The notes under the pieces are model-generated. The model worked only from the letters and a program-made list of their open reading frames with translations. It ran no database searches and had not been told where the DNA came from. A program made the position numbers and the translations under genes. From Betaproteobacteria bacterium (GTDB taxonomy: Bacteria; Pseudomonadota; Gammaproteobacteria; Burkholderiales; Thiobacillaceae), in the NCBI GenBank assembly GCA_016219425.1, contig JACRNB010000011.1:186001-250000 (forward strand): 64,000 nt of DNA. The letters are read 5' to 3'. Positions 8,427 through 61,087 of the stretch are shown here, one piece after another (within the stretch, counting starts at the first letter, position 1; every line of letters starts with the position of its first letter).

Positions 8427-8474
8427 TTATGGGGTGAAATTCCGTAAAATCGCGGCCTTTTCGCCGGGAACGTC

Positions 8475-8831: not shown

Positions 8832-8856
8832 GCGCCCCCTGGGCCGGGCTACGCGC

Positions 8857-9468: not shown

Positions 9469-9471
9469 GGG

Positions 9472-9870: not shown

Positions 9871-9875
9871 TGGGG

Positions 9876-35872: not shown

Positions 35873-35915
35873 TGGCGCGCCTGACACGATTCGAACGTGC
35901 GACCCCTGCCTTCGG
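35873..35915 (-). repeat. Left attachment repeat (displaced tRNA-Arg 3' end)
   Basis: 43 bp identical to 61045-61087. It covers the encoded CCA, acceptor 3' strand, T-arm, variable loop and the 3' side of the anticodon arm, but has no 5' half, so it is not a tRNA. An 8-bp inverted repeat TTGGCTGA (35863-35870) / TCAGCCAA (35916-35923) encloses it. Confidence 0.85.
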
Positions 35916-35947: not shown

Positions 35948-37519
35948 CTAGCTCTCCCAATCGTCCGGCCACTTTTTTTTCCATTCGGTAATCCTCGTGA
36001 GTCCAAGTAGTTTTGCCGCGCCTTTGAGGTTTCCATGCGTAGCTCGCATGGCACGGTAGTAGTAATGGCGTTTAACCTCGTCGATCACTTGATCAATTTT
36101 GAATCCATCGCTCAATGACCTGTCCAGAATGCCATTCCCGGATCGGCTGACGCTCAGTAGGGAACCGGATAGAGAGGCTTCGCTGATCATTTTTTCGTCC
36201 TGTCTGATGCTTCGAAGCGTGGCGCGGCGCAGGGTACTCTCCAGTTCCCGGATATTGCCCGGCCAGGAATGCTCATGCAGTTTGCGCCAAGCCTGTGTAG
36301 ACAATTCTAGTTGCGCCGTCTTCGGGTTGGCCTCTTGGATGCGTTGCATCAGGCTTTCAACGAGTGATCGTAGATCACTGTCCCGCTCCCTCAAGGGGGG
36401 TAGTCTGATGGGGATGTCAGCGATTCGATAGAACAAATCTTCCCGGAAGCGGCCTTGCCGAACAGCTTCAAGGAGGTCGACATGGGTGGCGGAGATGATC
36501 CGACAAGCTATGTCATAGTCTTTCTTGCCCCCCACTCGCCGGGCCTTGCGTTCCTCCAGTACGCGCAACAGCTTCACCTGGTGAGACAGACTCAGATCAC
36601 CGATTTCATCCAGGAACAGAGTGCCGTCCTTGACCTGTTCGAAGTAGCCCGTGGTCTCGGTTGCACCAGTGAAGGCTCCCTTCTCATGGCCGAAGAACAG
36701 GGATTCGAGCAGCTCCGGCGGGATCGCACCGCAATTGACCGGCAAGAATGGTTTGCCAGCTCGGCTCGCTTCATGGATATGCCGGGCCATACCTTCCTTG
36801 CCCGTACCCGATTCGCCCTCGATCATTACCGTGAATTCGGTCTGGGCCGCCATCTCGGCATCTTCAATGGCCTGAAGAAACATCGGTGATTCGCTTTTCA
36901 CCATACGACCAAACGAATCCGTATTGGTGATCGCCATGGGCAGCCGGGCTTCACTTTTCTTATCTGCCGGGGGCGTGGGGAGGAATCTGTAGTACAGGTC
37001 GATGGGAAGATTGAGGGGTTTCACACCCTCCTGCCTGGAACTGCTCAGAAGTTCAGCTTCGTAGCCCTTTGTCATCGACAAAAAGGTCCACACCCAGCCC
37101 ATGGTGGGTGTTCCGGAACTTGTGAGATACATGCGGCGTGCATCCCTGGGGAGAGAGTTGGCCTCTACAGCTTTCCTCGCTACGCCATAGACCTTGGAAA
37201 AGTCGCTCGGGTTGAAGTCGGTTCCGTTCTGAGGGGCGATCACCCTGGACGTCTTGGCCAGACTCGCCAGGGACGGGTTTTTCTTAAACAGGGCATCAAG
37301 GTACAAGTTACCGTAACCGCTGTCATCGAGAAGGATCATATGGTGGGGAGCTTCCTTAGATAGAAGCACCCTGACCAGGGGGCCGATGTCGCTGGTAGGC
37401 GCTCTCTGAAGAGGGGCTCCTCCTTGCACCTGACGAGCAAGTCCCACAGCATCGAGGTCGGTATTGCCTATCCAGGCAAACAGCCAGCACTCCTTGTCAA
37501 TTTTTGCTACCCGGGCCAT
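35948..37519 (-). CDS. CARF/RtcR-type sigma-54-dependent transcriptional activator
   Basis: 523 residues. The N-terminal ~200 form a Rossmann-like sensor with CARF/RtcR features: CWLFAWIGNTDLDAV at the start, HHMILLDDSGYGNLYLDAL, and MYLTSSGTPTMGWVWTFL, the SSGTPTM turn being typical of CARF ligand pockets. A sigma-54 AAA+ domain follows: Walker A EGESGTGKEG, the sigma-54-contact loop GAFTGA (281-286) and Walker B GTLFLDEIGDL. A short HTH end (LKGAAKLLGLTRITEWKKKW) completes it. AAGGAGAT precedes ATG 37519. It closes a four-gene operon that starts at a -24/-12 promoter, so it may activate its own operon. RtcR normally controls rtcAB RNA repair genes; none are here. With an active Cas10 in the island, a cyclic oligoadenylate ligand is a reasonable inference, not shown. 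Confidence 0.85.
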   Translation of the reverse strand: MARVAKIDKECWLFAWIGNTDLDAVGLARQVQGGAPLQRAPTSDIGPLVRVLLSKEAPHHMILLDDSGYGNLYLDALFKKNPSLASLAKTSRVIAPQNGTDFNPSDFSKVYGVARKAVEANSLPRDARRMYLTSSGTPTMGWVWTFLSMTKGYEAELLSSSRQEGVKPLNLPIDLYYRFLPTPPADKKSEARLPMAITNTDSFGRMVKSESPMFLQAIEDAEMAAQTEFTVMIEGESGTGKEGMARHIHEASRAGKPFLPVNCGAIPPELLESLFFGHEKGAFTGATETTGYFEQVKDGTLFLDEIGDLSLSHQVKLLRVLEERKARRVGGKKDYDIACRIISATHVDLLEAVRQGRFREDLFYRIADIPIRLPPLRERDSDLRSLVESLMQRIQEANPKTAQLELSTQAWRKLHEHSWPGNIRELESTLRRATLRSIRQDEKMISEASLSGSLLSVSRSGNGILDRSLSDGFKIDQVIDEVKRHYYYRAMRATHGNLKGAAKLLGLTRITEWKKKWPDDWES

Positions 37520-37568
37520 CGCTGATCTCCTTGTGTGCGATTCGTTGTGTTGAATACTTGCCCGGGAG

Positions 37569-38060
37569 TTACGGCCACTTCTCCAGAAGGGCCAGTATTT
37601 CGATCAGGGCCAATCCTCGGGGCAACCGGGTTTCCACCTCCTCGCCCGGCATCAACCCGATGATAGGGGCGGCCAGGGGGGAGTTGTAGGCGAGCCGGCG
37701 CAGGTACGGCTCGTTTTCGTTATAGCCGGAGATCTCCCAGGCCTGCTCGATCTCATCGCCGGAATCAAGATCCGTGATGCGGAGTTGAACAATGGCGCCG
37801 ATGGCCACACGATCCCGCGCTCTGGACGACGGATCAATCACCACGGAAGTGCCAATCAGCCGCTGGAGTTCGGCAATTTCACGGTTTTTGTTGGCCTCTA
37901 GCTGCTGGAGACGATTGAAATGGGGGTTGTCATGCCAGCCATCGCCGGACAGGGCGTGGGCCACGGTCCTTTCAGCGCAGATTTCATCGTATTCACGCCA
38001 CTTGCGGCTCAATTCGGTTTTCAGGTTGGTCAATCCGGAATCGGAGACGTAGATGGGCAT
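37569..38060 (-). CDS. GreA/GreB-like RNA polymerase secondary-channel factor
   Basis: 163 residues. The N-terminal coiled coil carries SGDGWHDNPHFNRLQQLEAN, comparable with the GD-S-EN acidic tip of GreA that enters the polymerase channel and stimulates cleavage of backtracked RNA. The C-terminal FKBP-like domain includes ELQRLIGTSVVID, YLRRLAYNSPLAAPIIGLMP and GEEVETRLPRG. It is not the housekeeping GreA, being divergent and island-borne. TTTGGAG precedes the ATG. Third gene of the sigma-54 operon. Confidence 0.82.
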   Translation of the reverse strand: MPIYVSDSGLTNLKTELSRKWREYDEICAERTVAHALSGDGWHDNPHFNRLQQLEANKNREIAELQRLIGTSVVIDPSSRARDRVAIGAIVQLRITDLDSGDEIEQAWEISGYNENEPYLRRLAYNSPLAAPIIGLMPGEEVETRLPRGLALIEILALLEKWP

Positions 38061-38062
38061 GA

Positions 38063-38704
38063 TTACTCCAAAGCTCCAGTCAGTTGTTCAAGTATCCGTA
38101 TGCCCTGCTGGAGGACTATTGGATGGGGTTGCGTGGCATCAATGTGATGCCACGTGATGTGCTCAACACCCAAACTTCCAGCCAGATACTTCAGTTGGCG
38201 GTAGGCATTGATGCAGGCGGCCAAGCGTGACGGGGCTTCGTCTCGTAGGCCGTAATCCCTGTGGGGTCTGCCCGCGATGCGAGACAAGGCCGTGTCCACA
38301 TCCACATCCAGAAACAGGATGTGGTCAGGCAAAGGGATTCGGTGTTCCAGACGGTCCACGCGATCAAGGTGTTGTTCGGCCCCGTGATGCCCTGAGCCAG
38401 GCCAGCGTGTGGCGTAACTGGTCAGGATGGATCGGTCTCCGAGGATCAGCGGACTACGCTTAGGCACTTGTGATGCGTGCCAGTTGGAACGGAAAGCGTA
38501 GAGGTGTTCCATCATGCCGTCCCAGTGTTCAAGTCTGAGTGTCCGGTAAACCCATTCCATGACGTGCCCGGAGACCGGGGCGGTAGGGCGCAAGCAATGA
38601 TGTGGCCGTCCCTTGGACACCAGGTAGCGGGTGATAGCCTTGAACAAGGAGGACTTGCCGCACCCCTTGATGCCTTCAATGGCGATGTAGAGAGGCCTGG
38701 ACAT
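38063..38704 (-). CDS. Thymidylate-kinase-like P-loop kinase
   Basis: 213 residues. P-loop GIKGCGKSSLF (10-20), DR motif LILGDRSILTS, lid-like DVDVDTALSRIAGRPHRD. The order matches dTMP kinases, but the DRX and lid parts are divergent, so the nucleotide acceptor is uncertain. It is two bases from the GreA-like gene and four from the cupin-like gene, so co-transcribed. An extra, regulated nucleotide kinase in a CRISPR island is unusual; a role in nucleotide depletion or signal turnover is speculation. Confidence 0.8.
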   Translation of the reverse strand: MSRPLYIAIEGIKGCGKSSLFKAITRYLVSKGRPHHCLRPTAPVSGHVMEWVYRTLRLEHWDGMMEHLYAFRSNWHASQVPKRSPLILGDRSILTSYATRWPGSGHHGAEQHLDRVDRLEHRIPLPDHILFLDVDVDTALSRIAGRPHRDYGLRDEAPSRLAACINAYRQLKYLAGSLGVEHITWHHIDATQPHPIVLQQGIRILEQLTGALE

Positions 38705-38708
38705 GGCA

Positions 38709-39503
38709 TCAGACAGGGAAAGTTGAACAAGCCTGTCCGGCCAGGAGCAGGTAGCGCTTCAGCACCTCCTTCAGTTCGGATCTGGTGAGATAACGCTGCT
38801 CAACATCAGGAGTGATGTCTTTTGAAGTCAGTAAGCGGTTCCAGGCTCTGCAAGGATTGCTCTGGCACATGAGCGTAGCTGTCATGGGACCGTGGCCTAT
38901 GCCCGTGATGCGATGCAGCACGCCCGGGGGCAAGAAATACCCTTCACCGGCCCTGCGGACACTGCGCCCTGTCAGGCGCAGCCGGGAAATGCCGATCAGT
39001 TCTGCGCTAGCCGCTCTGGCTTCCTGTTTCCCCCGGTAGAAATATTCCGGGAACTGAGGGTCAGACGTGGAGAGTGAGTCCTCATAGGTTTCGCTGATCA
39101 GTTCGCCGTGGAGGATGCGGGAGGCAAACCACCAACGATGATCGTGGATGTTTTCTTCAGCGTCTGCTTCCGCGAACCAGATGTGCAGGCGGAGTTTGTA
39201 GAGGTCGCTGGCGGACAGCACGATCTTGTAGAACCCGTTGCCATGTCGATAGGAACGGGATGCCACATCCTTCAAAGCTACAGGGTCGCGCAGCAGTTGG
39301 GTCAGCCTGATGGCGAGGCCGTAGTTGGCGAAGCCATCAAGTTGTTTAACCAGGCCTGTCATGACCTGGGCGGGCTCGGCATTCAACAGAATCTGTTGAA
39401 CGATATCCTCGTCCAACCCTGCCCCCTCCTGTGCCGGAGTGGAGCGGCGCAGTGCACTTTCCGAAATGCCCAGGCGGGAGAAGACAGACTTTTGCGTTTG
39501 CAT
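38709..39503 (-). CDS. Cupin-like protein, first gene of the sigma-54 operon
   Basis: 264 residues. A helical first 90 residues precede a cupin-type barrel: HIWFAEADAEENIHDHRWWF gives the metal-binding HDH, and GEGYFLPPGVLHRITGIGHG gives the second histidine motif, as in cysteine-dioxygenase-like cupins. No signal peptide. Probably a metal enzyme or a metal-dependent binding protein; the family is not one I can name. Starts about 26 bp after the predicted sigma-54 transcription start. Confidence 0.75.
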   Translation of the reverse strand: MQTQKSVFSRLGISESALRRSTPAQEGAGLDEDIVQQILLNAEPAQVMTGLVKQLDGFANYGLAIRLTQLLRDPVALKDVASRSYRHGNGFYKIVLSASDLYKLRLHIWFAEADAEENIHDHRWWFASRILHGELISETYEDSLSTSDPQFPEYFYRGKQEARAASAELIGISRLRLTGRSVRRAGEGYFLPPGVLHRITGIGHGPMTATLMCQSNPCRAWNRLLTSKDITPDVEQRYLTRSELKEVLKRYLLLAGQACSTFPV

Positions 39504-39537
39504 GGCTTAAATCCATTGAAGAGAAGGTTCGCCCTAT

Positions 39538-39554
39538 CTGCAACGTCCGTGCCA
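39538..39554 (-). promoter_or_regulatory. Sigma-54 (-24/-12) promoter of the cupin-kinase-GreA-CARF operon
   Basis: Minus strand reads TGGCACG-GACG-TTGCAG, an exact match to the consensus TGGCACG-N4-TTGCA with GG and GC 12 bases apart. It should start transcription near 39529, 26 bp before the first ATG. I saw no second full match ahead of any other gene in the island. Confidence 0.88.
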
Positions 39555-39572: not shown

Positions 39573-39585
39573 AATCAATGAGTTA
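39573..39585. promoter_or_regulatory. IHF site upstream of the sigma-54 promoter
   Basis: AATCAA-TGAG-TTA fits the IHF consensus WATCAA-N4-TTR exactly. It lies about 20 bp upstream of the -24 box in an AT-rich stretch (39570-39655), the usual place for bending that brings a sigma-54 activator to the polymerase. Confidence 0.6.
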
Positions 39586-39659: not shown

Positions 39660-39695
39660 GATGACGTGTTCCAAGCCACTCACTTCGTCGTCATC
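39660..39695. promoter_or_regulatory. Candidate upstream activator site
   Basis: Inverted repeat GATGACG (39660-39666) / CGTCATC (39689-39695), about 110-140 bp upstream of the -24 box, which suits an enhancer for the CARF sigma-54 activator. It also lies just before the divergent DUF1232 gene. Binding is not shown. Confidence 0.35.
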
Positions 39696-39735
39696 CTAGT
39701 GGCATCTCAACCCGACATCGAAAAAGGAAGATGCC

Positions 39736-40083
39736 ATGAGCCAGCACCCCTCCACTTACTCCAGCAGCTACTCTGATCAAGGCCTGTTTGACGTCCTGAA
39801 ACGGTTTGCCAAGTCCATCGGCAGCGAGACGGTCCATAAGGCCCTCTGTCTCTGGCTGGTGATCAGGGATAGCAATGCCCCTGCCTGGGCCAAGGCGGTG
39901 GCCGTAGGCGCTTTGGGCTACCTGATTAGTCCGATCGACGCCATTCCCGACCTCATTCCCTTCATCGGGTTCACCGATGACATCGCCGTCATCGCGGCGG
40001 CAGTTGTAACCCTGTCGCTCTATATCACCGATGACATCAGCGCCAGGGCCACAGCCATGATGCCAACCTGGCTGCAGGACTAA
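39736..40083 (+). CDS. DUF1232 (YkvA-like) membrane protein
   Basis: 115 residues with AAGGA before ATG 39736. The DUF1232 core AVAVGALGYLISPIDAIPDLIPFIGFTDD is unmistakable, followed by one hydrophobic helix. Family role is unknown; members are often near stress or toxin-antitoxin genes. It is divergent from the sigma-54 operon and 73 bp before the VirD4/HerA-type ATPase gene. Confidence 0.88.
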   Translation: MSQHPSTYSSSYSDQGLFDVLKRFAKSIGSETVHKALCLWLVIRDSNAPAWAKAVAVGALGYLISPIDAIPDLIPFIGFTDDIAVIAAAVVTLSLYITDDISARATAMMPTWLQD

Positions 40084-42535: not shown

Positions 42536-42790
42536 GCTGAAGTTGCTGCAGGCAGTTGGGGCGTATGGAAGAGACGACAGCCCCCCAAGCAAGATTGGCG
42601 ACAGGTGTGCCGGTATTCATCACCCCGCCTTACGGAGATCCCCGCCAGCTATTCGCGCGCTCCAATGGCCAGTTCGCATGACCTCTGACTCCACCCCCAG
42701 CGGCCACCCTACATCCGGGCAACGTATGAAGTGGGAGGGGCGGCCTGCATCTGATCCGCCGCGTTGTGGAGCGATCCGTGAAAGCCGGCC

Positions 42791-44131: not shown

Positions 44132-44185
44132 GTGAAGTCCTTTCGCAGTCAGGTTTCAGGTGGTCAGGGGTGGGAGACCTGGGTG

Positions 44186-44602
44186 CTAGATCCCGGCATC
44201 CACGTCCCTGCGCAAGGGCAAGGGATCGCTGGCGGCCTCAGCCCCCAGAGCCAGGGCGCGGGACACCGAATCGATGCTGGAAAGGGCCAGGCTCTGCATG
44301 GCCAGGGTGAGGCGCTGATGCAAAAAGCGCTGCCGGGCAGAAAAGTCCGACTTCAGGGCAGCACGCAGCGCCCCCAGTTCGGCCTGCTCGGTAGCGGATA
44401 AATCGCCAGTCGGCAGGGCCTGATCGAACTGGCCGGCCATACGCCGGTCGAGATGCTCGAGCATTACGCGGTGGGAACGATCCAGCCGCTCCTCCGCATC
44501 ACGGAACAGCTTGGCGGCGCTGCAGGAGTTAGCAGGAACCACCTCCCCCTCCAGGATATCCAGAGGAGAGGCCGGGGAGACATGGTCTTGGTCGTAGGTC
44601 AT
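44186..44602 (-). CDS. Helical hypothetical protein
   Basis: 138 residues from ATG 44602, which has AAGGA 6 bases upstream. Almost wholly alpha-helical, without signal or membrane segment. It contains SLALSSIDSVSRALALG, and the neighbour at 44617 contains VALSSIDQQR, so the two may be distant relatives or bind the same partner. Lies between DUF4407 and that neighbour in one transcription unit. No known family. Confidence 0.65.
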   Translation of the reverse strand: MTYDQDHVSPASPLDILEGEVVPANSCSAAKLFRDAEERLDRSHRVMLEHLDRRMAGQFDQALPTGDLSATEQAELGALRAALKSDFSARQRFLHQRLTLAMQSLALSSIDSVSRALALGAEAASDPLPLRRDVDAGI

Positions 44603-44616
44603 GGCGATTCCTTTCT

Positions 44617-45186: not shown

Positions 45187-45196
45187 GATGCTTCCT

Positions 45197-45704: not shown

Positions 45705-47486
45705 TCAGGCCAGGATGATGGAGATCAGACCGTTCACCAGTTTCTGGTAATGCTGAACGGCGGATTCGATGCCGCACCGGGCTAGGATGGCCTGCACCTC
45801 CGGTTGCGCCAGGAAGCAACTCCCCGCCTCCCGGGTAGCCTCGGGCCAGATGCCGAGGCGAATGAATTCCAGATGGATTTGACCGAGATCAGCCGGGGAC
45901 AGATTACTGTGGGCCAGCATGTTGCGGATATCTTTCGGACTCACGAAACGATGCCCCAGAGTCACCCTCTTATTGTTGTCGTTGTAGGCTGGATTGAGTC
46001 TGGAAAAGTACGTACTTAAATGCTCATTCCCAATGAATTCATCACGCCAGCGGGCATCGTGCTTGGTCTGGGTCATGATTTCAAGCTGGATACTCTTGCG
46101 GTTCTCGCTCTTTTTGAGACAGGGCTCCTGGCTGGGGGCAAGGGGCTGGATAAGGGAAGAAAATTCCGCTTGAATACTGTGATACCCATTTTCAACAATC
46201 TTGTTTCTGGAAACCGGATCACGTTTAGCGGCGGGTTTCCTCAAACATCCACCCCCATTTTTCTCCGCGATCTCTATATGCCTGGTCAGATCATTGATGC
46301 GTACCCTGGCGTCTGGAAAATACTGCCGTAGCCGCAATTCCAGAAGATCACGTTGGGCGGATTCGATAAAAGAAAGGGTAAACAGGACAGCGTCGGCGAT
46401 GGCATGGCGTGCCAGGGCCGATTCCACTCGCAAGGCCTGAATGGCGCATCGGGGCAGGTGCTGATCCAGCCAGAAATGAATGAAATCCGGATTCTGGTGG
46501 ATTATCGAGGTATCCTGGGGCAAGCCTGACAACAGGGCATTCACCGCCTTGACGGCATGGCGCCAACCGGATTCATCGGGGAGGTCAGCGACGCTATCCG
46601 CCATGACGCTGGCGCCATAAAAGTCCTGCCGTTGTACCAGACCCAGAACCATCTTGCGCAGTCGCAATAAAGTGGCTGGGGGTAATTCCATGGAGGAATA
46701 GACGATCGTGGCAGGAACAGTCGTTCCCGACACGGGATCCGGCGTGCGGATTTCATACACCTCGGCAAAATGCAATTGCGCCAAAGCCACAATGTAGTCA
46801 TTCAACTGGTGAATTCCGCCGTCCATGGCCGTGGCCACCGCATCAAATTGCCCGCTGGTGGCCAAGGTTTTCAGGAACACGTCCAGACGGCCCAATACAA
46901 CAGGATTCAGCCGTCCATTGAAAAACAATGCATCCCGTCCGCTCAGATAATTGAAGCACGCAGACTGAGGCGTCTCACTCGTGGGTTGAAATGCGCCCGA
47001 CTCCACCAATTCCACCCCCAGCACATGGGCCGCAGCCAAGGCCAGTATGGGGCCAGTTGCCACCGGTTCCTGCTCCGTCTCGCGACCACCCGAATTGGCG
47101 TCACGGTGAGTATTCAGAACCAGCACACCAACGGCTTTCCAATCCTGCAACTCGGAATGGAGCAAGAACACATCCAGGGCGGAAGACAGCTTCGGGGTGC
47201 AGAGATTCAGCTTGTTCGATTCGTCATGAAACGGGGAAACCCCGGTATGACTGGATTGCCAGCCCGATCCGCTCCTGGTGATCCACACACTCCCTGATTC
47301 CAGGGGCGGGGGAGGCGCATCGACATCCAGTGCCCACTGTTGAGATTCGGACAGCAAGAACTGGTGGAACTCCCGCAGTGACGTGCCTTGAACATTCACG
47401 GGAGTTCTGCGCAAGCCCAGAGGGGCATCCACCAACAACTGGATATCCGTTCTACCGCCCGCCACCAGAAGAAGAACGCGCTTCAT
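45705..47486 (-). CDS. CARF-HEPN ancillary ribonuclease (Csm6/Csx1-like)
   Basis: 593 residues from ATG 47486; the frame runs further up into CRISPR repeats but that is not coding. The N-terminus KRVLLLVAGGRTDIQLLVD is a Rossmann strand-loop and FDAVATAMDGGIHQLNDYIV looks like the CARF ligand loop. The C-terminal helical domain carries RNMLAH (R521, H526), the R-x4-H active site of HEPN RNases. In type III systems such proteins are switched on by cyclic oligoadenylates and cut RNA non-specifically. It begins 35 bp beyond the trailer end of the array, in the same direction as array transcription, so it may be expressed from the array transcript. Confidence 0.78.
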   Translation of the reverse strand: MKRVLLLVAGGRTDIQLLVDAPLGLRRTPVNVQGTSLREFHQFLLSESQQWALDVDAPPPPLESGSVWITRSGSGWQSSHTGVSPFHDESNKLNLCTPKLSSALDVFLLHSELQDWKAVGVLVLNTHRDANSGGRETEQEPVATGPILALAAAHVLGVELVESGAFQPTSETPQSACFNYLSGRDALFFNGRLNPVVLGRLDVFLKTLATSGQFDAVATAMDGGIHQLNDYIVALAQLHFAEVYEIRTPDPVSGTTVPATIVYSSMELPPATLLRLRKMVLGLVQRQDFYGASVMADSVADLPDESGWRHAVKAVNALLSGLPQDTSIIHQNPDFIHFWLDQHLPRCAIQALRVESALARHAIADAVLFTLSFIESAQRDLLELRLRQYFPDARVRINDLTRHIEIAEKNGGGCLRKPAAKRDPVSRNKIVENGYHSIQAEFSSLIQPLAPSQEPCLKKSENRKSIQLEIMTQTKHDARWRDEFIGNEHLSTYFSRLNPAYNDNNKRVTLGHRFVSPKDIRNMLAHSNLSPADLGQIHLEFIRLGIWPEATREAGSCFLAQPEVQAILARCGIESAVQHYQKLVNGLISIILA

Positions 47487-47521
47487 ATTGATTCCAAGAA
47501 TGGATAAATGGAAGGGGGATA

Positions 47522-49112
47522 CTGCATAGCGGCATACACCGCAAATGGAATTACAACCTGTGCCACTCAACCCCGCCCGGTTGGTCCGTTTCAAGCGGCA
47601 TACACCGCAAATGGAATTACAACGAGATTTTTGTTCAACACCGGACACGAAAGTTTCAAGCGGCATACACCGCAAATGGAATTACAACTCAACTGGGATG
47701 AGTTCGATCCATTCGGAGAGTTTCAAGCAGCATACACCGCAAATGGAATTACAACCGTGTTTGCGTCTTTCGTCAGGTGAATGTTTCAAGCGGCATACAC
47801 CGCAAATGGAATTACAACAAACCAGCATGTGATTCTCGGGCCATACGGTTTCAAGCGGCATACACCGCAAATGGAATTACAACAACAAATGGCACGGCCG
47901 ATGGTTGGTCAGGTTTCAAGCGGCATACACCGCAAATGGAATTACAACAAAATAAGGGTAGTTCGTAGTTCAATTTTGTTTCAAGCGGCATACACCGCAA
48001 ATGGAATTACAACCAAAATGTCCACGAAGAATTTTGTTTTTGGTTTCAAGCGGCATACACCGCAAATGGAATTACAACCAATTTATAAACAAACCAGCGA
48101 CGCAATAGTTTCAAGCGGCATACACCGCAAATGGAATTACAACCAAAAAAATGAAAATGGCAATGAATATCATGTTTCAAGCGGCATACACCGCAAATGG
48201 AATTACAACCATGACGGTGGTGGATTACGCGTTGTCCGGTTTCAAGCGGCATACACCGCAAATGGAATTACAACCCATGCAACAGGCCCTCATGTCGGCT
48301 AAGTTTCAAGCGGCATACACCGCAAATGGAATTACAACTTAACGGAGGTGTAGTTCTAGTTGATAGAGTTTCAAGCGGCATACACCGCAAATGGAATTAC
48401 AACGCAAACTTCATCCTCGATCTGAAGAACTCGTTTCAAGCGGCATACACCGCAAATGGAATTACAACCCATTAATTTTTTTGAATCTGGATAAGCGTTT
48501 CAAGCGGCATACACCGCAAATGGAATTACAACGGAAAATCTTCCGCAGCACTATTTTTCGGTTTCAAGCGGCATACACCGCAAATGGAATTACAACCCTT
48601 CAGCCGCGACGGCGCCGGCCTTGGTTTCAAGCGGCATACACCGCAAATGGAATTACAACCGTATTTCCTCAACAAAATGTTTGATGTCGTTTCAAGCGGC
48701 ATACACCGCAAATGGAATTACAACCGCACCACGTTGTTCGTTCCTTGAGAAAGGTTTCAAGCGGCATACACCGCAAATGGAATTACAACTCAGAAAAAAC
48801 ACTCTGTCGCTTTTGGAGTTTCAAGCGGCATACACCGCAAATGGAATTACAACAAATGAACGCGCGTATCTACACAGTGAAGTTTCAAGCGGCATACACC
48901 GCAAATGGAATTACAACTAATCATGAACCAAGTCCAAACCCCCCAAAGTTTCAAGCGGCATACACCGCAAATGGAATTACAACCAAAGAAGGGTTGGTGG
49001 AAGAACAATTAGGTTTCAAGCGGCATACACCGCAAATGGAATTACAACCCGACCCCAGTTATGTCTGGCGATCATTGTTTCAAGCGGCATACACCGCAAA
49101 TGGAATTACAAC
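47522..49112 (-). CRISPR. CRISPR array, 25 repeats of 36 bp, 24 spacers
   Basis: Repeats start at 47522, 47588, 47653, 47720, 47783, 47848, 47913, 47978, 48043, 48108, 48174, 48239, 48303, 48368, 48433, 48497, 48561, 48624, 48689, 48754, 48818, 48882, 48948, 49013 and 49077. Spacers are 27-31 bp, mostly 28-29. On the minus strand the repeat begins GTTGTAATTCC, has a small hairpin GCGG-TGTATG-CCGC and ends GCTTGAAAC, the usual 3' tag of type III crRNAs, so transcription is leftward from a leader at 49113. The repeat at 47522 has lost its GCTTGAAAC end, as expected for the oldest, trailer-end repeat; that at 47720 has one change. Confidence 0.98.
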
Positions 49113-49259: not shown

Positions 49260-50141
49260 ATGGCTGGCACAAAAGATGCTACATGGCCGGACATGAAACC
49301 CTTCGTCACCCTTGCCACTCAACCCGGCCTCCTCGACACGGCCTGGCGGCATGTGTCCAGCCAGAAAGGCCTGTGGAGGCCCGGGGTTCCTATCTCGTGG
49401 GTACGCCTCCATGTGTTGCGCCATGTAGGTCTCCTGGCAGAGGAACTGCGCTCGGGGCGTTATGAACCAGACCCGCCAAGGCGATTCAGCATCCAGAAGG
49501 GAGATGGCTCCGAACGTCCGCTGGCGAGCTATTACCTGAGGGACCGGTTCGCCCAGCGCCTGGTCTTGCTGGCCCTGGCGCCTCGGGTGGAACCCATTCT
49601 GCATGAGTCCAGCTATGCCTACCGGCCACTTTGTTCGTCCGACATGGCCGTCTGTCGCGCCCGCGAATGGATACGCCGCGGCTATATCTGGCTGGCCACC
49701 GCAGATATCGCCCGCTGCTTCGAAAACATTCCCCACGACGGCGTGCTGAGACGAATTGCGGATGTGACGGACCTGGGTGTGCTGGAGCCAGTCTTGCGCG
49801 CATGGCTAGGCGCTCCCGAATCACACCGGGGATTGCCCCAGGGGATGGTGCTGTCTCCCTTGCTGTGCAATCTCTACCTCAACAGCATGGACTGGGCCAT
49901 GGCCGCCAGGGATGTGCCGTTTGTGCGCTACGCCGACGACATCCTGTTGTTCGCTCGTTCCCGCGGTCAGGCGCGGGGGGCCTTGCTGGCTGCCGGTGCG
50001 GAGGCGGGCAGGCTCGGCCTGGCTCTGCACCCGGATAAGACTACCCTGGCCATGAGTTCCCGCAGCCTGGTTTTCCTCGGTCGCCGCATGCCAGGACTGC
50101 TGGAGGCACACCAAGATGAAAACTGGCTGGAAGCCGCCTGA
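49260..50141 (+). CDS. CRISPR-associated reverse transcriptase (stand-alone)
   Basis: 293 residues; ATG 49260 is used, with MKPFVTLATQ at 49293 as an alternative start. Group II intron-like RT motifs: RPLASYYLRDRFAQRLVLLA, motif A WLATADIARCFENI, motif B GLPQGMVLSPLLCNLYLN and the catalytic FVRYADDILLF (motif C). No maturase or endonuclease domain, and it is not fused to Cas1. It overlaps the Cas2-like gene by 26 bp and precedes cas1, so it should act in spacer acquisition, copying RNA-derived spacers to DNA. Confidence 0.93.
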   Translation: MAGTKDATWPDMKPFVTLATQPGLLDTAWRHVSSQKGLWRPGVPISWVRLHVLRHVGLLAEELRSGRYEPDPPRRFSIQKGDGSERPLASYYLRDRFAQRLVLLALAPRVEPILHESSYAYRPLCSSDMAVCRAREWIRRGYIWLATADIARCFENIPHDGVLRRIADVTDLGVLEPVLRAWLGAPESHRGLPQGMVLSPLLCNLYLNSMDWAMAARDVPFVRYADDILLFARSRGQARGALLAAGAEAGRLGLALHPDKTTLAMSSRSLVFLGRRMPGLLEAHQDENWLEAA

Positions 50142-50775
50142 GCCTCCATTGCGGGGTGCGGCCGAGCCCTGTCTCCTGGCCTATGACATTGCCCATCGAC
50201 GGCGCCTGCAACGGGTTGGCCGGGTGCTTGCCCACTGGCGCATCGGCGGCCAGAAATCTGTCCATGAGTGCCTGCTGCGGCCCCATGAGCAGATTGACCT
50301 GCTGGCCGAGGTGGCGGAGTTGATTCAGCCCGAGCAGGACAGTGTCCTGCTGGTGCGCCTGCCCTGGGGTGAGGGTGGGCCGTCCGTCGCCGGGGTGCCC
50401 TCCTGGCGGCCAGGCCAGCCCGATCTCCTGGACTGGCGGGTCGCCGCCCCCCTGCCTTGGCCACAGACACAGGCCTGGACGCTGCTGGCCTATGACGTGC
50501 GCGATGCGCGCAGGCTGCGCCGGGCCCATGCTCTCCTGGCCGCGGTGGCTACGCCGTTGCAGCGTTCCCTGTTCCTGCACTTCGGCGCCGGCGCCGAACT
50601 GGCATCGCTACTGGTGCGGATGACAAAGATTCTGGGGGATGAGGATGACCTGCGCTTGTATAGGCTGGGCCATCCACGGCGACTCTGGTGGTTGTGCGGC
50701 GGCATCCCCCTGTCGGACGCGGAGTTGGGCCCGCCCAGGATTCCGTCCGATACCCTTATCTGGTATGGCCCTTAG
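50116..50775 (+). CDS. cas2: Tandem Cas2-Cas2 fusion protein
   Basis: 219 residues, twice the normal Cas2 length. The first half has CLLAYDIAHRRRLQRVGRVL and GGQKSVHECLL, the ferredoxin-like Cas2 pattern; the second half repeats it with TLLAYDVRDARRLRRAHALL and PLQRSLFLHFG. Both keep the aspartate after the first strand (YD). A proline/tryptophan linker (about 85-110) joins them. A single chain could replace the Cas2 homodimer in the Cas1-Cas2 integrase. GGAGG is 9 bases before ATG 50116. Confidence 0.85.
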   Translation: MKTGWKPPEPPLRGAAEPCLLAYDIAHRRRLQRVGRVLAHWRIGGQKSVHECLLRPHEQIDLLAEVAELIQPEQDSVLLVRLPWGEGGPSVAGVPSWRPGQPDLLDWRVAAPLPWPQTQAWTLLAYDVRDARRLRRAHALLAAVATPLQRSLFLHFGAGAELASLLVRMTKILGDEDDLRLYRLGHPRRLWWLCGGIPLSDAELGPPRIPSDTLIWYGP

Positions 50776-50784
50776 GAGGCAAGT

Positions 50785-51711
50785 ATGGGACACCTGCAAC
50801 TCTGGATTGACGAACCCGGGGCCAGTCTGGACCTGGTGTCAGGCGCCGCGCGTATTCGCCTGGCCTCTGGCGAGATGCGTCAGGTCGGCGTAGGCGCTCT
50901 GGCCCAGGTGACCTTGTTGCGGCCTGCCACCCTGAGCACCGATCTACTCCGGGCCTGCCACGAGAATGGTGTGGCTGTGGCTCTGCTTTCCGAGCGCTCT
51001 CCCAATGCTGCGTTCTTGTGGCCCGCGTCCCCGCGCGGGGCGCGTCTGCGTCATGCCCAGCACCGGGTGGCCGACGATGCGGCCCACAACCTGGACCTGG
51101 CCCGCTGGCTGGTGGCGGAAAAGATCCGGGAGCAGATGCGCTGGTTGACGGCCCAGGATGTGGAGCATCACCTGGAGCGTTTCCGTCTTGCCGCCCTGGC
51201 TACCAGCCAGATCGATACCCTGCGCGGCATCGAGGGGGCGAGCAGCGCGCGCTATTTCAGGCTGTGGGCGGGGCTCTGGCAGGCTCCATGGCAGTTTCCG
51301 GGACGCGACCGGTTGCCACCTGGCGACCCGGTCAACGCACTACTGTCCCTGACCTATACCCTGGCCCTGGCCATGACGGGACGCCTGGCCGGCGCAAGGG
51401 GGCTGGATCTGGCGGTGGGCAGCCTGCACCCCCTCACCGGAGATCGCCCCGCTTTGGCCATGGACCTGATGGAACCCCTGCGCCCCTGGTGCGATCAGTG
51501 GGTCTGGCAGATCTGCGAGTCGGGCAAGGTGACGCCGCAGGATTTCGAGCTGGATCCGGAACGTGGCTGCCGATTGACCCGCGACGGGCGGCGGAAATAT
51601 TACGCAGCCTGGTTTGCAGACCAGCGCCGTTGGTTTGAACCCCAGGCCCGTCGTGGACTGGCGGGCTGGCTGCGCCAGTTGCGAGTCCGTCCGGAAGGGC
51701 TTCCGGACTGA
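50785..51711 (+). CDS. cas1: CRISPR integrase Cas1
   Basis: 308 residues after a perfect TAGGAGG. The all-alpha catalytic part holds the metal ligands: E in LRGIEGASSARYF, H in AVGSLHPLTGDRPALAMDL and the acidic D/E pair in ALAMDLMEPLRPW. N-terminal beta domain is normal. Third gene of RT-cas2-cas1. Integrates spacers at the leader end of the adjacent array. Confidence 0.95.
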   Translation: MGHLQLWIDEPGASLDLVSGAARIRLASGEMRQVGVGALAQVTLLRPATLSTDLLRACHENGVAVALLSERSPNAAFLWPASPRGARLRHAQHRVADDAAHNLDLARWLVAEKIREQMRWLTAQDVEHHLERFRLAALATSQIDTLRGIEGASSARYFRLWAGLWQAPWQFPGRDRLPPGDPVNALLSLTYTLALAMTGRLAGARGLDLAVGSLHPLTGDRPALAMDLMEPLRPWCDQWVWQICESGKVTPQDFELDPERGCRLTRDGRRKYYAAWFADQRRWFEPQARRGLAGWLRQLRVRPEGLPD

Positions 51712-51755: not shown

Positions 51756-54038
51756 TTACGGTTTGCCTGGACGAACCTCAGGGGGGAGCAGGAAGGTGAA
51801 CTGGGAACACCGCCTGGCCGTGGCGTAATCCCTTCTCACTTTGCTGTGGAAAGTGGGAATACTGAGGGTTCCTTTTCTGTCTGCCTCCAACGGATAGCTG
51901 CGCAGGGGCCCCGTGAAGGCATGCAGGTTCAACCAGGACTGAATTACGCCCTCTGCTTCCGCCCCCAGACGATCCCGTAACGCCTGAAGGTAGGGTACCT
52001 GGGCGTCTGTCACCACGACTTGCAAAGAGGTTTCCTTTTCTGGGCGCAACCTCAGATCGTCGATGTGGAGTTCCACGCTGCCCATGCCAAGGGGCCGACC
52101 ATGACCAAGTTTGTGCGCATACCGGGTAGACCCCTGCACCGTTCCCGGTGTGGCAAGCCGACCGGGCTCCAGTACGGCCAGAAGAGCGCCCAGTTCCCAT
52201 GGCCGCAACCGGGCAAACCGCAATGTGAAGCGGAAATCGGATTCCCGGTCACAGACATAGTGGGCCCGAGCATTGAGTTCACCCGCCGGTTTGTCTCCCC
52301 GACCGGGCTGGATGCTATCCAGATTTGTTGACGGCTGATGTGGATAGACCTTGCGTCCGCCCAGGTTGCCCCCAGGATCACCGGGCAGGTCGCCATAGGT
52401 TTTGAGGGGGGGCGCGGCGGTCTGGTCCAGGTAGAACTCGACAGCACTGGGCTTGGGTGAGCCCAGGGGGCGCAGCGGGATGGGCTGCTGATCGGACACG
52501 CCGAGGAAACGAAGTTTTTGGGATAGCGCATGGTTGATGGCGATCCTGCCGGCCAGCTTGTCATAGGCCTTTTTCTTGTCCCTGATCAGATCGACGTATT
52601 CCCCATCGTTGACATAACCGAACAGCAGCCTGGCTGCCGTGAGCCGTTCAGGAGGCTTGCCATCCTGTATCTCTTCTTCCTGAAGCCCTCCCAATTCAGG
52701 ACGGAGAGCCCCGTTCCTGATGCGAATGCTGTTGCTGTAAGCCCACCGGTAGTGGAAGTGGTGCCCCAGAGAAACGATCTTGCCGGATGAGACTTCCTGC
52801 TCGATGTAGATAAGCTGCCATGGCTCAAGATTGGAAGCATTGCTGATCGCTTTTGCGATGCGTTGTTGAGGCTCTTCCGAGTTCTTGGGATCGGAGCTTC
52901 CAGCCAAGGGGGGCGCCGCGTCATTGAAGTATTTCTTCATCGGGCTTCGTTCCAGATGCTCCCCCGCAAGCAGGGACTGGGTTTCCCGGTAAGCCTTCAG
53001 AACAGTCGGTTCAATGGGCAGGGAAGTCTTGCTGATCAGACTTTCTGGGACAAGGACTTGGGAATAGACCTGTCCACCGCTGTTCTTCATTTCCAATGCA
53101 AAGGCCTTGGCCAAATAGCCCATTCCGTCGATCCCGCCTTTGTAGAGGCAGACCTTGCCTTTCAGGCGCTTATCCCCTCCCTTGTCCTTGATCCTTTTCT
53201 TGCCGTTTGCCTCCTCGACAGAAAAGTCATCCTGGATGTGGGATCCAGGTAACGCTTCTTTTGGAGAGAGCACCCCCTGGAGAATGAAGTACACAGACCT
53301 GACGTCTTGTAGAGGCCAGACCGTCACGCTGCCATCCGCAACAGTTTCAACGATGGCAGGAAGACACCTGTATTTGTCCGGAGTCCTATTCCAATCCACA
53401 AAATTGGGACGGTAGGTGAAGCGCTGATCCTTAACTCGCTCCATGGGGGCGTTGAGCAGGATGGCTAGGCTTTGCCGCAACATGCCCTTGATGGAGGAAC
53501 CGGGCACCACGACCTGGTTTCCCATCATGAGGGGGTAGAGATGGTGGCTGGACGAGGTCTCAATCTGCTGGTTTCCAATCTGCTGGTTTCCCACGAGCAG
53601 GGGGGTCAACACCGTCAGGGTGCACCGGATTTCCCCGCTCAACAGATCGCCGCCGCTGGAGCCATCGTGCCAGACCGGGGCATCGTTGATGGCGTGTTTC
53701 AGGTCGATGGGGGCAAAGCCGTAGGGGATGGGCTGATTCCTAACAGGATCGGCCTTGGTGGTGGGGTGCGCGGACGCTCCCGTGGATGGGCCGTTCTTGT
53801 GGGCGGGCGACATGGGCGCGACATCCAGAGGCCTCAGGTTATAGGCCTCCATTTCCCCATTATCCCTTCGCTTTTGATCATGGCTGGGTCTCTCTTCATA
53901 GCTGACCCACATACCCTGGGAGAGCTTATTAGCACTATCGGATGGACGAAAATAAATACTCTTACGGTCGCTCTGCTTTGGCGCAACAAAACCAAAGTTA
54001 TTCTCCAGGTTCAACTTTTGAATGAATCCCTCAGGCAT
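51756..54038 (-). CDS. Cas7-insertion RAMP subunit (TIGR03986 family) with N-terminal cold-shock-like domain
   Basis: 760 residues. Residues 1-65 (GFIQKLNLENNFGFVAP, IYFRPSD) look like a cold-shock OB fold. From about 130 comes a Cas7 RAMP: CTLTVLTPLLVG, VVVPGSSIKGMLRQ, and the glycine-rich end GHGRPLGMGSVEL, interrupted by a large insertion. At the position of the backbone-cleaving aspartate of active Cas7 subunits the sequence is SSHHLYPL, so this unit is probably not catalytic. GNQQI occurs twice because of a 15-bp tandem duplication (53561-53590). GGGAGGGG precedes the ATG, which overlaps the csx19-like stop by 8 bp. Last gene of the cas10 operon. Confidence 0.88.
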   Translation of the reverse strand: MPEGFIQKLNLENNFGFVAPKQSDRKSIYFRPSDSANKLSQGMWVSYEERPSHDQKRRDNGEMEAYNLRPLDVAPMSPAHKNGPSTGASAHPTTKADPVRNQPIPYGFAPIDLKHAINDAPVWHDGSSGGDLLSGEIRCTLTVLTPLLVGNQQIGNQQIETSSSHHLYPLMMGNQVVVPGSSIKGMLRQSLAILLNAPMERVKDQRFTYRPNFVDWNRTPDKYRCLPAIVETVADGSVTVWPLQDVRSVYFILQGVLSPKEALPGSHIQDDFSVEEANGKKRIKDKGGDKRLKGKVCLYKGGIDGMGYLAKAFALEMKNSGGQVYSQVLVPESLISKTSLPIEPTVLKAYRETQSLLAGEHLERSPMKKYFNDAAPPLAGSSDPKNSEEPQQRIAKAISNASNLEPWQLIYIEQEVSSGKIVSLGHHFHYRWAYSNSIRIRNGALRPELGGLQEEEIQDGKPPERLTAARLLFGYVNDGEYVDLIRDKKKAYDKLAGRIAINHALSQKLRFLGVSDQQPIPLRPLGSPKPSAVEFYLDQTAAPPLKTYGDLPGDPGGNLGGRKVYPHQPSTNLDSIQPGRGDKPAGELNARAHYVCDRESDFRFTLRFARLRPWELGALLAVLEPGRLATPGTVQGSTRYAHKLGHGRPLGMGSVELHIDDLRLRPEKETSLQVVVTDAQVPYLQALRDRLGAEAEGVIQSWLNLHAFTGPLRSYPLEADRKGTLSIPTFHSKVRRDYATARRCSQFTFLLPPEVRPGKP

Positions 54039-54501
54039 TTTTCCCCTCCCTGATCACCAGTCTCCAGGCCTTCAATCCACCTTCCTGGAAATACTCCAGG
54101 GCAGCCAAGTCCAGGTTGCCTGAAACATTCAGTTCGAGTCCAAAGCGGGCCTGGTCTCGCAGAAGGAACACCGTCTTTTCGGTACACAGATAGCTCTCGC
54201 CTTCGACCTCTTCCAGGTACGCCCAACGGCACCCTTTGACGGGGTCGGCGACGATATGCAGGGCACGATCCGGCCAGAACACCCTGGCCTCGGCGAGGGG
54301 AATCGCCTCCGGCCAGTTCGGGACGCCTACCACCAGAGGGGCGAAACCGGGAATACGGCCGGGGTGTCCATCCTGGCAGTAGTCTGACTCAGGTTCCGCC
54401 CAAGCCAGCATGGCCTCCGCACCCCACTCTCGGGCCAACTCACTTACGGATTTCTCCGGCTCGAACCCGTGGGTCCGGTTCAGATCAACCTGCCTGTTCA
54501 T
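54031..54501 (-). CDS. csx19: Csx19-like type III-D subunit
   Basis: 156 residues from ATG 54501 (MNRQVDLNRTHGFEPE); an upstream extension lies in the cas7-2x gene. The middle segment EARVFWPDRALHIVADP fits the Csx19 pattern of an RxF...dgElhlwR strand, and the closing ALEYFQEGGLKAWRLVI is beta-rich. Csx19 is found only in type III-D loci and sits within the complex. Identification rests partly on its place between cas7-2x and cas7-insertion. Confidence 0.7.
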   Translation of the reverse strand: MNRQVDLNRTHGFEPEKSVSELAREWGAEAMLAWAEPESDYCQDGHPGRIPGFAPLVVGVPNWPEAIPLAEARVFWPDRALHIVADPVKGCRWAYLEEVEGESYLCTEKTVFLLRDQARFGLELNVSGNLDLAALEYFQEGGLKAWRLVIREGKNA

Positions 54502-55828
54502 GTGCTGCCTCCAGATGTTTCTTCGAAGCCGAATCCATTTCCCAGTGCAGCCAGCCGTGGCCCCGCCACTGGCCGCCGCCCAACCCGATCTGGCCGGCTT
54601 CCGCCAGTTCGAACAACTCCCGCATCGCTTGCCTGGTCTCATCGTCCGGGTCTTCCAGCACCATCTTCCATTCGAAGTCCCCTTCGAAGACGGCAATCCG
54701 ATCGAACTTGGAACTGTGGAAGGGCCCCGCAGTGAATTCATCCTCGGCATGGTGCTGCAGCCAGGCAAACTTCACCTGACTGCCCTTAGGCACAAAGGCA
54801 TCCCGGATCAACAGTTTGGCGCTGGCACGGGTGGTCCCGAACAGTCTTTCCACCAGAGCTTGACTGGTTTCGCCGCGCGCCCTGCTGAGGCGGGCCAGGG
54901 CATGACGCAGCGGCCCCCTCAGTGAAGATCCCGGTATGTAAGGCATGCGCTTGTCTTGCTCCCCCGCCAGGGTTACCACGGCAAAGTCGGGATCGAAAAC
55001 CTGGCTGGCCTGCTTCTCGACGCCTGGTGGGGAAAGAAAACGCTCATCCCAGATCGTCATCAGCTTGTCACTGGCATGCCCCCCTATGGACAGGCTGTCT
55101 ATGCCATAGCCGTCATCCCGCTTTCCGGCCAGGACCCTGCCCTGCAATTCGAGCCTGCCGGGCATGGGATCCTCTGCAGGTTTCACTTCTTTCACTTCTG
55201 GGGACATCCCAGGGAAGGTCAGGCGTAGATAGTCCGAGTAATCGGCCGCCTGGAAAGCATTGGGCCAGAGCTCCGCATGTTCATGGGTGAGGGTGTACTC
55301 CTGAAGGTTGTCCAGACGCATCCAGCCCATGCCCCGGGCCACTTCCCGGCCCAGCAGACATCGGCCGGCGCGCCAATGGGCAAGCACAAGTCGTGCAAGG
55401 TCGGCTGCCAGGGGGTAAGCATGGGTATCCACTTCCAGCAGGAAGGTCCAGCATGTGCCTGGCGGCAGGGTTTCAATATTGAACAGGCCCCCATCGGCCC
55501 CCGTCCCGGTAACTGGATCAATCGCAACATGCTGCCGGAACACGGGCTTGTCGAAGTCCTCGGGATGGCTATTGAAGGTTCTCCATGCGGAAGGATGCCG
55601 GCCACCCTCCGCACCGGATATTTCCCCAGGAACCTTACCGGCATTGCACCGCGCCAGATCGGCAATCATTGCGCCGGCAATGCCTGAGCCTCGTATCGTC
55701 GGCCTCCCCTCACCATCCAGACAGAAGGGGGCGTCCACCGTGGTCCAGGGGTCGTCCGTCCCCCCCACGGACAGAAAGGATTCCTGTACCAGTGAACCGG
55801 TAAATAGGGTGCGATAAGGCCTGCTCAT
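54485..55828 (-). CDS. Cas7-2x, fused double Cas7 RAMP subunit
   Basis: 447 residues from ATG 55828, after AAGGGGGAGA. Two Cas7 domains in one chain. The first starts LFTGSLVQESFLSVGG, with VDAPFCLDGEGRPTIRGSGI (Asp32 at the expected cleavage position). The second starts GRLELQGRVLAGKRDDGYG, with DPDFAVVTL and MPYIPGSSLRGPLRHAL, and ends in a glycine loop IGLGGGQWRGHGWLHW. Both retain an aspartate before the IPGS/IRGS motif, so both could cut target RNA. ATGA overlap with cas7-5-11. Confidence 0.87.
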   Translation of the reverse strand: MSRPYRTLFTGSLVQESFLSVGGTDDPWTTVDAPFCLDGEGRPTIRGSGIAGAMIADLARCNAGKVPGEISGAEGGRHPSAWRTFNSHPEDFDKPVFRQHVAIDPVTGTGADGGLFNIETLPPGTCWTFLLEVDTHAYPLAADLARLVLAHWRAGRCLLGREVARGMGWMRLDNLQEYTLTHEHAELWPNAFQAADYSDYLRLTFPGMSPEVKEVKPAEDPMPGRLELQGRVLAGKRDDGYGIDSLSIGGHASDKLMTIWDERFLSPPGVEKQASQVFDPDFAVVTLAGEQDKRMPYIPGSSLRGPLRHALARLSRARGETSQALVERLFGTTRASAKLLIRDAFVPKGSQVKFAWLQHHAEDEFTAGPFHSSKFDRIAVFEGDFEWKMVLEDPDDETRQAMRELFELAEAGQIGLGGGQWRGHGWLHWEMDSASKKHLEAAHEQAG

Positions 55829-61044: not shown

Positions 61045-61087
61045 TGGCGCGCCTGACACGATTCGAACGTGCGACCCCTGCCTTCGG
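61045..61087 (-). repeat. Right attachment repeat (within tRNA-Arg)
   Basis: 43 bp identical to 35873-35915, covering the 3' portion of the tRNA gene from the anticodon loop to the encoded CCA. Confidence 0.85.

What the first reader, a model, noticed from the sequence alone, without database searches (positions are those of the whole stretch)
35948..39554. A CARF-type sigma-54 activator at the end of an operon with a perfect -24/-12 promoter, inside a type III CRISPR island
Seen: the operon cupin-like / dTMP-kinase-like / GreA-like / CARF-AAA-HTH reads leftward from TGGCACG-N4-TTGCA at 39554-39538, with an IHF consensus at 39573-39585. The activator keeps Walker A, GAFTGA and Walker B. Known: CARF domains bind cyclic oligoadenylates in type III systems and RtcR is a CARF-like sigma-54 activator of RNA repair genes. 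Inference: the Cas10 of this island makes a ligand that switches on this operon, giving a transcriptional arm of CRISPR immunity with positive autoregulation. I know of no described system with this gene set.
Basis: partly seen in the sequence, partly recalled or inferred. Interest (0 to 1): 0.95.

Follow-up and report, generated by a model that had tools for sequence, protein, structure and literature searches.

The report
CARF sigma-54 operon in CRISPR island
A mobile bacterial defence island carries, beside a type III CRISPR system, a small gene set that seems to be switched on by an RtcR-like sensor protein encoded at its own end, which may give the island a gene-expression response to infection, although the link to CRISPR is not proven.

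Summary
Four packed genes read leftward behind a perfect -24/-12 promoter (39554-39539), the only exact one in the window and one of six in the genome. The last gene is a CARF-AAA+-HTH enhancer-binding protein; a predicted structure supports the CARF fold, and PADLOC files it as RtcR_PspF2, a catalogued family. An exact 43-bp repeat of the tRNA-Arg 3' end brackets a 25.2-kb island holding both this operon and a type III system with a GGDD Cas10 and a CARF-HEPN RNase.

Of 80 relatives' loci, one showed CRISPR genes in my tests; the pocket motif is RtcR-like (SGTP, no K/R), and published RtcR is not activated by oligoadenylates. Yet two other type III loci carry relatives near the same CARF-HEPN type, one next to a T7-like RNA polymerase, so coupling is plausible.

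My preferred model: infection-derived RNA ends, possibly made by the island's own HEPN RNase, release the activator, with positive feedback. New: the target set (dioxygenase-like cupin, nucleotide kinase, GreA-like) and the activator-last layout. A new variant of a known kind.

The parts
39539..39554 (-). -24/-12 sigma-54 promoter TGGCACG-N4-TTGCA
   Evidence: exact consensus, the only one in the window; 6 in the genome, reversed control 0
39573..39585 (+). IHF-like consensus AATCAATGAGTTA upstream of the promoter
   Evidence: exact match; 2 in window, 1.06 expected
39660..39736 (.). candidate enhancer region: inverted repeats of 7 bp (39660-39695) and 8 bp (39700-39736)
   Evidence: arms of this length are near chance by my estimate, so only a candidate
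38709..39503 (-). cupin-like (cysteine-dioxygenase-like) protein, 264 aa
   Evidence: PHROG 4786 E 4.6e-11; five invariant histidines in a 9-row alignment, window included
38063..38704 (-). dTMP-kinase-like P-loop nucleotide kinase, 213 aa
   Evidence: Pfam PF02223 E 1.8e-9; PHROG 761 E 5.9e-13
37569..38060 (-). GreA/GreB-like protein, 163 aa
   Evidence: Pfam PF01272 E 6.6e-9; NCBIfam GreA 60.7 bits against cut-off 167
35948..37519 (-). CARF-AAA+-HTH sigma-54 activator, RtcR_PspF2 type, 523 aa
   Evidence: PADLOC PDLC01995 E 1.2e-133, residues 12-509
36995..37489 (-). CARF sensor domain (about residues 11-175), motif SSGTPTM
   Evidence: AlphaFold2 mean pLDDT 85.2; all 14 Foldseek hits with E up to 0.001 are CARF proteins
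36407..36895 (-). AAA+ sigma-54 interaction domain (residues 209-371)
   Evidence: Pfam PF00158 E 1.1e-61
35987..36052 (-). Fis-type HTH without the QT[LFI] signature seen in 54 of 62 relatives checked
35873..35915 (.). left island junction: 43-bp copy of the tRNA-Arg 3' end
61045..61087 (.). right junction within tRNA-Arg(CCG) 61045-61121
45705..47495 (-). CARF_m10-HEPN RNase of the same island (RN...H motif conserved in 3 aligned rows)
   Evidence: PADLOC PDLC01974 E 3.9e-59
47588..49112 (.). CRISPR array, 24 repeats of 36 bp, plus a degenerate copy just before it
49260..51711 (+). reverse transcriptase, Cas2, Cas1
51756..59455 (-). type III effector genes: RAMPs, Cas5-like, Cas10 (57824-59455, GGDD)

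Best explanation
An infection-responsive, self-amplifying sigma-54 operon carried as cargo of a tRNA-Arg defence island. At rest the CARF domain holds the AAA+ domain inactive. A signal, most likely RNA ends (2',3'-cyclic phosphate fragments, as for RtcR), relieves this; its source could be phage damage or the island's own Cas10-activated CARF-HEPN RNase. The hexamer then remodels sigma-54 polymerase at 39554, and the cupin/dioxygenase-like enzyme, nucleotide kinase, GreA-like factor and the activator itself are made. Shown: gene order, promoter motif, domains, predicted CARF fold, common island. Inferred: repression and release (from RtcR), the RNA ligand, the relay from Cas10 through HEPN, the autoregulation, and the defence role of the products (perhaps nucleotide chemistry that hampers phage).
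For: Operon and promoter. Full-length RtcR_PspF2 match; CARF fold. In relatives a sigma-54 consensus lies within -60 to +250 of the activator's stop in 20 of 66 loci against 0.22 expected, so this family drives its neighbours; a same-genus copy does so before type I restriction genes (L217). The SGTP motif, with P where other CARFs have K/R, is in the window and in four class relatives found without using the motif; PMC4012209 says RtcR mostly lacks that charge. RtcR binds 5' tRNA halves ending in cyclic phosphate (PMC7790460) and is not activated by cA4/cA6 in vitro (PMC9650030). PMC11090510 ties RtcR homologues to HEPN-bearing CoCoNuTs and proposes that HEPN products feed them. RtcR_PspF2-like proteins stand near CARF_m10-HEPN in L085 and L138.
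Against: No ligand, transcript or phenotype has been measured. The operon is about 6 kb from the CARF-HEPN gene, across other cargo (DUF1232, TraD/mad8-like ATPase, DUF4407). No four-gene relative was found. The HTH differs from most relatives'. The trees do not firmly join window, L085 and L138.
Confidence: 0.45

Rival explanations
1. One reading: cyclic oligoadenylate from the island's Cas10 binds the CARF domain directly and switches on the operon.
For: Same integrated island; Cas10 keeps GGDD; CARF fold closest to oligoadenylate-bound receptors (where no RtcR structure appeared among the 50 rows shown); relatives inside two other type III loci.
Against: P in place of K/R after strand 4; RtcR bound cOA very weakly and was not activated; 1 of 80 activator loci (the 3.4-kb L085) had CRISPR genes by these tests; among 50 distinct regions around Cas10-model matches only L138 has this CARF type; absent from 3 of 5 window-type Cas10 loci, of which L147 and L196 meet a contig end.
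Confidence: 0.2
2. Independent island cargo: the operon answers its own signal (tRNA damage, phage nucleotides) and merely shares a mobile element with CRISPR.
For: The relatives whose partners I looked at (7 loci, 3 annotated plasmids, 2 same-genus loci) precede type I restriction genes, VWA-PP2C-kinase-AAA sets, a helicase or unassigned genes, none recognised as CRISPR; separate promoter; island carries other cargo.
Against: L085 and L138 show RtcR_PspF2-like proteins joined to type III genes.
Confidence: 0.3
3. A metabolic operon (nucleotide or thiol oxidation) with no defence role.
For: Cupin relatives also sit in metabolic-looking clusters (L019, L112).
Against: Defence-island setting and CARF sensor; the kinase has PADLOC matches (VakA 4.5e-7, candidate PDC-M51B 4.7e-5; L131 kinase to PDC-M51B 2e-9), though these are weak and kinases of this fold are widespread.
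Confidence: 0.05

Closest known systems
RtcR, activator of rtcBA (Escherichia coli, Salmonella)
   Same: CARF-AAA+-HTH; sigma-54; local operon
   Different: NCBIfam RtcR 273 bits against cut-off 650; no rtcA/rtcB in the operon (whether they lie elsewhere in the genome was not searched); activator is the last gene of its own presumed target operon
RtcR_PspF2 / R-M-linked and CoCoNuT-linked RtcR homologues (PMC4012209, PMC11090510; passages read)
   Same: PADLOC full-length match; neighbouring defence genes behind sigma-54 promoters
   Different: in relatives with a recognisable promoter it follows the activator gene, or diverges from it; here it precedes the operon and the activator comes last; different cargo; divergent HTH
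CalpL-CalpT-CalpS (type III, SAVED-Lon protease and sigma factor)
   Same: would also be a transcriptional arm of type III immunity
   Different: protease releases a sigma factor, rather than a sigma-54 enhancer-binding protein (passages read in PMC11229360 and PMC12751052)
Csa3 (CARF-wHTH)
   Same: CARF transcription factor linked to CRISPR; among the Foldseek hits
   Different: no AAA+; the studied ones are archaeal and bind cA4 (abstracts and passages)

Membership tests
CARF domain superfamily | CARF Rossmann-like fold | tested here: met
   Foldseek: all 14 hits with E up to 0.001 are CARF proteins, best 3.3e-5, prob 1.00; TM-scores by query length are modest, 0.45-0.61
CARF domain superfamily | K/R after strand 4 as in oligoadenylate-binding families | tested here: not met
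   SSGTPTM has P; same in four class relatives. The genome contigs relatives were picked by this motif and do not count
RtcR_PspF2 (PADLOC CARF_AAA_HTH) | full-length profile match | tested here: met
   E 1.2e-133, residues 12-509
RtcR_PspF2 (PADLOC CARF_AAA_HTH) | sigma-54 promoter directly after the activator gene (a trend found here, not a published definition) | tested here: not met
   promoter lies before gene 1 instead; 20 of 66 relatives have it
RtcR proper | NCBIfam equivalog cut-off and rtcBA target | tested here: not met
   272.9 of 650 bits; no rtcA/B in the operon
sigma-54 enhancer-binding protein | Walker A, Walker B, GAFTGA, AAA+ domain | tested here: met
type III CRISPR oligoadenylate effector | binds and is activated by cA2-cA6 | not testable with these tools
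   needs biochemistry
type III CRISPR oligoadenylate effector | regular co-location with Cas10 | tested here: inconclusive
   window and L138 yes, L085 beside CARF-HEPN and Cas1 (no Cas10 found in its genome); other relatives not
tRNA-integrated genomic island | direct repeat of tRNA 3' end at both ends | tested here: met
   43 bp exact; no integrase among the island proteins scanned

The most novel reading that the evidence does not exclude
A lineage of type III CRISPR systems with the CARF_m10-HEPN effector has a dedicated transcription arm built on RtcR-type CARF proteins. In the window it is a sigma-54 operon; in G068 (L138) it is a CARF-HTH protein paired with a T7-like single-subunit RNA polymerase. 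HEPN-made RNA ends or oligoadenylates are relayed into new gene expression, including nucleotide-modifying enzymes and a GreA-like polymerase factor.
Probability: 0.25. Interest if true: 0.88.

Novelty: new variant of a known kind. Interest (0 to 1): 0.6.

Why it matters
If the operon answers Cas10 or HEPN activity, type III immunity would feed into sigma-54 transcription, and a CARF-RNase-to-CARF-activator relay would join two separately studied uses of the CARF domain. I know of no measured ligand for the non-Rtc CARF activators; this operon, with one clean promoter and reporter-ready layout, makes the question directly testable.

Tried and rejected
Cas10 model PF22335 as a co-occurrence measure: it also matches E. 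coli, presumably GGDEF proteins, and the two sets differ in phylum, so 24 of 50 activator genomes against 97 of 369 class genomes over its cut-off is not usable as such; only 50 of the 80 loci were sent.

GAFTGA as a contrast between CRISPR-linked and other activators: rejected on recheck. The 56 relatives used had been chosen by G[AS]FTGA, so their 62-of-62 count (6 others included) is circular. Among the 13 loci set aside, L063 and L106 have GAFTSA like L085, L069 GSFTSA, L048 GAFTNA and L052 GAFTDA. L085's loop is therefore not special to CRISPR loci.

A CRISPR-only clade of activators: the CARF tree groups window, L028, L085 and L138 (84/88), but three of these are long branches; the full-length quick tree does not join window and L085. 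Not claimed.

Kinase as a marker: no plasmid match and no confirmed viral-contig relative. Window-type Cas10 and the L138 polymerase in viral contigs: none confirmed. The kinase HMM was built from the window's kinase and the three loci it then found, so those hits are no evidence. The CARF HMM contained the window, L085 and L138 sequences; L138's independent score is PADLOC's E 1.1e-13.

Cas10 of the L085 genome: none found in G754; the tool notes that an empty answer shows nothing. UAS: inverted repeats near chance, candidate only.
Full report
What is there. Four genes on the minus strand, separated by 4, 2 and 49 nt, run from 39503 to 35948. In order they encode a cupin-like protein (PHROG cysteine dioxygenase, E 4.6e-11), a thymidylate-kinase-like protein (PF02223, E 1.8e-9), a GreA/GreB-like protein (E 6.6e-9) and a sigma-54 activator (PF00158, E 1.1e-61). 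A perfect -24/-12 element lies at 39554-39539. It is the only exact TGGCACGNNNNTTGCW in the window and one of six in the 3.1-Mb genome, with no match to the reversed control. The IHF consensus at 39573-39585 is exact, but such sites are expected about once per window. Two inverted repeats at 39660-39736 could be the enhancer; I judge their length near chance.

The sensor. A 57-row alignment of CARF regions gave an AlphaFold2 model with mean pLDDT 85.2 and pTM 0.80. All 14 Foldseek PDB matches with E up to 0.001 are CARF proteins (Card1, Csm6, Can2, Cdn1, Cad1; best E 3.3e-5); Csa3 and Cam1 follow. TM-scores are modest, up to 0.61 by query length among those 14. PADLOC assigns the protein to RtcR_PspF2--CARF_AAA_HTH at E 1.2e-133. 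It is not RtcR proper: 273 bits against a cut-off of 650. That the PADLOC names come from a 2020 CARF classification is my recollection; the id I tried for that paper is not held.

The island. The 3' 43 nt of tRNA-Arg(CCG) (61045-61121) are repeated exactly at 35873-35915, and G+C is 0.588 inside against 0.663 and 0.670 outside. The 25.2-kb segment holds the operon at one end. It also holds a GGDD Cas10 (57824-59455), RAMP genes, reverse transcriptase, Cas2 and Cas1, 24 repeats and a degenerate one, and a CARF_m10-HEPN RNase with a conserved RN...H motif. A TraD/mad8-like ATPase, DUF4407 and DUF1232 genes lie between. No integrase was recognised among the island proteins scanned.

Relatives of the activator. 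In 369 genomes of the class, 5 including the own one had the CARF region. In 60 closer relatives, 3 had it, all among the 22 same-genus genomes, at 33% identity. A scan of genome contigs, by a pattern around GTP[AT]M, gave 369 relatives, of which the 80 best were kept; none exceeded 33% identity in the CARF region. Sixty-seven of these 80 had an ORF with both GTP[AT]M and G[AS]FTGA; one over-long ORF was dropped, leaving 66. The 13 others are truncated or have other loop letters or, in L049, were missed by my ORF choice. In 20 of the 66, a sigma-54 consensus lies from 60 bases before to 250 after the activator's stop, against 0.22 expected, and in 4 more a divergent one lies just upstream. Partners seen include type I restriction genes (L101 and same-genus L217 by Pfam; Vitreoscilla plasmid by annotation) and VWA-PP2C-kinase sets (L036 by Pfam; two plasmids by annotation). 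I did not annotate the partners of most of the 80. In L217 the promoter stands right after the activator's stop. So where a promoter is recognised, the usual order is activator, promoter, target. The window breaks it: promoter first, activator last, which implies positive autoregulation.

Link to type III CRISPR. Against: no array was found by my simple exact-repeat detector in the 80 loci, and tblastn with window Cas proteins hit only L085. Many loci are cut by contig ends. I chose 49 regions around Cas10-model matches in the class (52 fetched, three of them twice), plus L138. Of these 50, only L138 has this CARF type. None of 17 regions around Cas10-model matches in genomes of activator relatives has it at E 1e-3, one reaching 0.003. 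For: in L085 a CARF_m10-HEPN gene (E 5e-73) overlaps an activator gene (PADLOC E 6e-139) by 20 nt, followed by a Cas1 end; no window-type Cas10 was found in that genome. In L138 the Cas10 is 47% identical to the window's. The L138 genes on the minus strand run from a T7/mitochondrial-like RNA polymerase (PF00940, E 4e-60) through a CARF protein with a degenerate AAA part and an HTH (PDLC01995, E 1e-13), and a gene I read as cas6 (no Pfam hit), to CARF_m10-HEPN and cas10. They start at the edge of a CRISPR array. Window-type Cas10 occurs in five loci I saw: window, L138, L147, L196 and L214. RtcR-type CARF proteins are in two; L147 and L196 meet a contig end. CARF_m10 itself is rare: 2 of 219 class genomes including the own one at E 1e-8. 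Of the CARF_m10 loci seen (window, L138, L085, L196), three have an RtcR_PspF2-like protein; but the window is the subject and L085 came from an activator search, so the unbiased count is one of two.

A caution on function. L138 lacks GAFTGA and its AAA part looks degenerate, so it is probably no sigma-54 activator. L085 has GAFTSA, which also occurs in relatives without seen CRISPR genes (L063, L106), so it is not a mark of CRISPR copies. The HTH signature QT[LFI] is in 54 of 62 other activators (56 of them the set) and absent from window, L085 and L138 by that test. The trees do not prove one origin.

Ligand. The CARF motif is SSGTPTM; P stands where oligoadenylate-binding families have K/R. 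PMC4012209 (passages read) notes that RtcR mostly lacks this charge and may bind other ligands. PMC7790460 (passages) shows RtcR binding 5' tRNA halves with cyclic phosphate. PMC9650030 (passages) found no activation by cyclic or linear oligoadenylates. PMC11090510 (passages) ties RtcR homologues to HEPN-bearing CoCoNuTs and proposes that HEPN products feed them. Hence my preferred relay: Cas10, oligoadenylate, CARF-HEPN cleavage, RNA ends, activator. Every arrow after the gene content is inference.

The products. Relatives of the cupin-like gene were gathered in plasmids, phages and genomes. I used 14 loci besides the window: one phage of 13 near-alike phage records is taken, and the weak L018, with a stop inside, is left out. 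Three have a thymidylate-kinase-like gene close by: L112 (annotated dTMP kinase), L131 (PF02223, E 2.7e-26) and L025 (same cassette as L131 by eye). L110 has an annotated deoxynucleoside kinase about 4 kb away. In the other ten I saw none. The pair therefore recurs, in part in cassettes with an HTH and a membrane protein. A nucleotide substrate is my guess.

Literature. From the listings of my searches I found no paper on this gene set, nor on a sigma-54 CARF activator or single-subunit polymerase in a type III locus; most listed papers were not opened, and the library holds only open-licence papers. PMC11229360 set transcription factors aside and does not contain the word RtcR in its main text. 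CalpS and Csa3 are known transcriptional outputs of type III signalling.

Verdict. The activator family is known; its target set, activator-last layout and type III neighbours are new to me. CRISPR control is possible, but direct oligoadenylate control is the less likely form.

Noticed in passing
L138 (G068:C35) 6405-10946, minus strand: T7/mitochondrial-like single-subunit RNA polymerase followed after 6 nt by a CARF-degenerate AAA-HTH gene, at the head of a type III CRISPR gene run and next to its array.
   Followed up: partly
L085 36-3372: CARF_m10-HEPN gene overlapping a CARF-AAA-HTH gene (GAFTSA loop, also seen in other relatives), then a Cas1 end.
   Followed up: partly
L048, L052, L063, L069, L106: CARF-AAA-HTH relatives whose GAFTGA loop reads GAFTNA, GAFTDA, GAFTSA or GSFTSA; whether they still work with sigma-54 is open.
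   Followed up: no
window 35873-61087: 25.2-kb tRNA-Arg island with no recognised integrase; how it moved is unclear.
   Followed up: partly
L131 3207-6135 and L025 6601-9500: Recurring cassette HTH / thymidylate-kinase-like / membrane protein / cupin-like in two families; the L131 kinase matches PADLOC candidate PDC-M51B.
   Followed up: partly
window 40157-45544: TraD/mad8-like ATPase, DUF4407 protein and three small genes between operon and CRISPR; function not worked out.
   Followed up: no
window 24621-25143: Near-identical 144-bp and 112-bp direct repeats with 219-237 bp spacing, outside the island.
   Followed up: no
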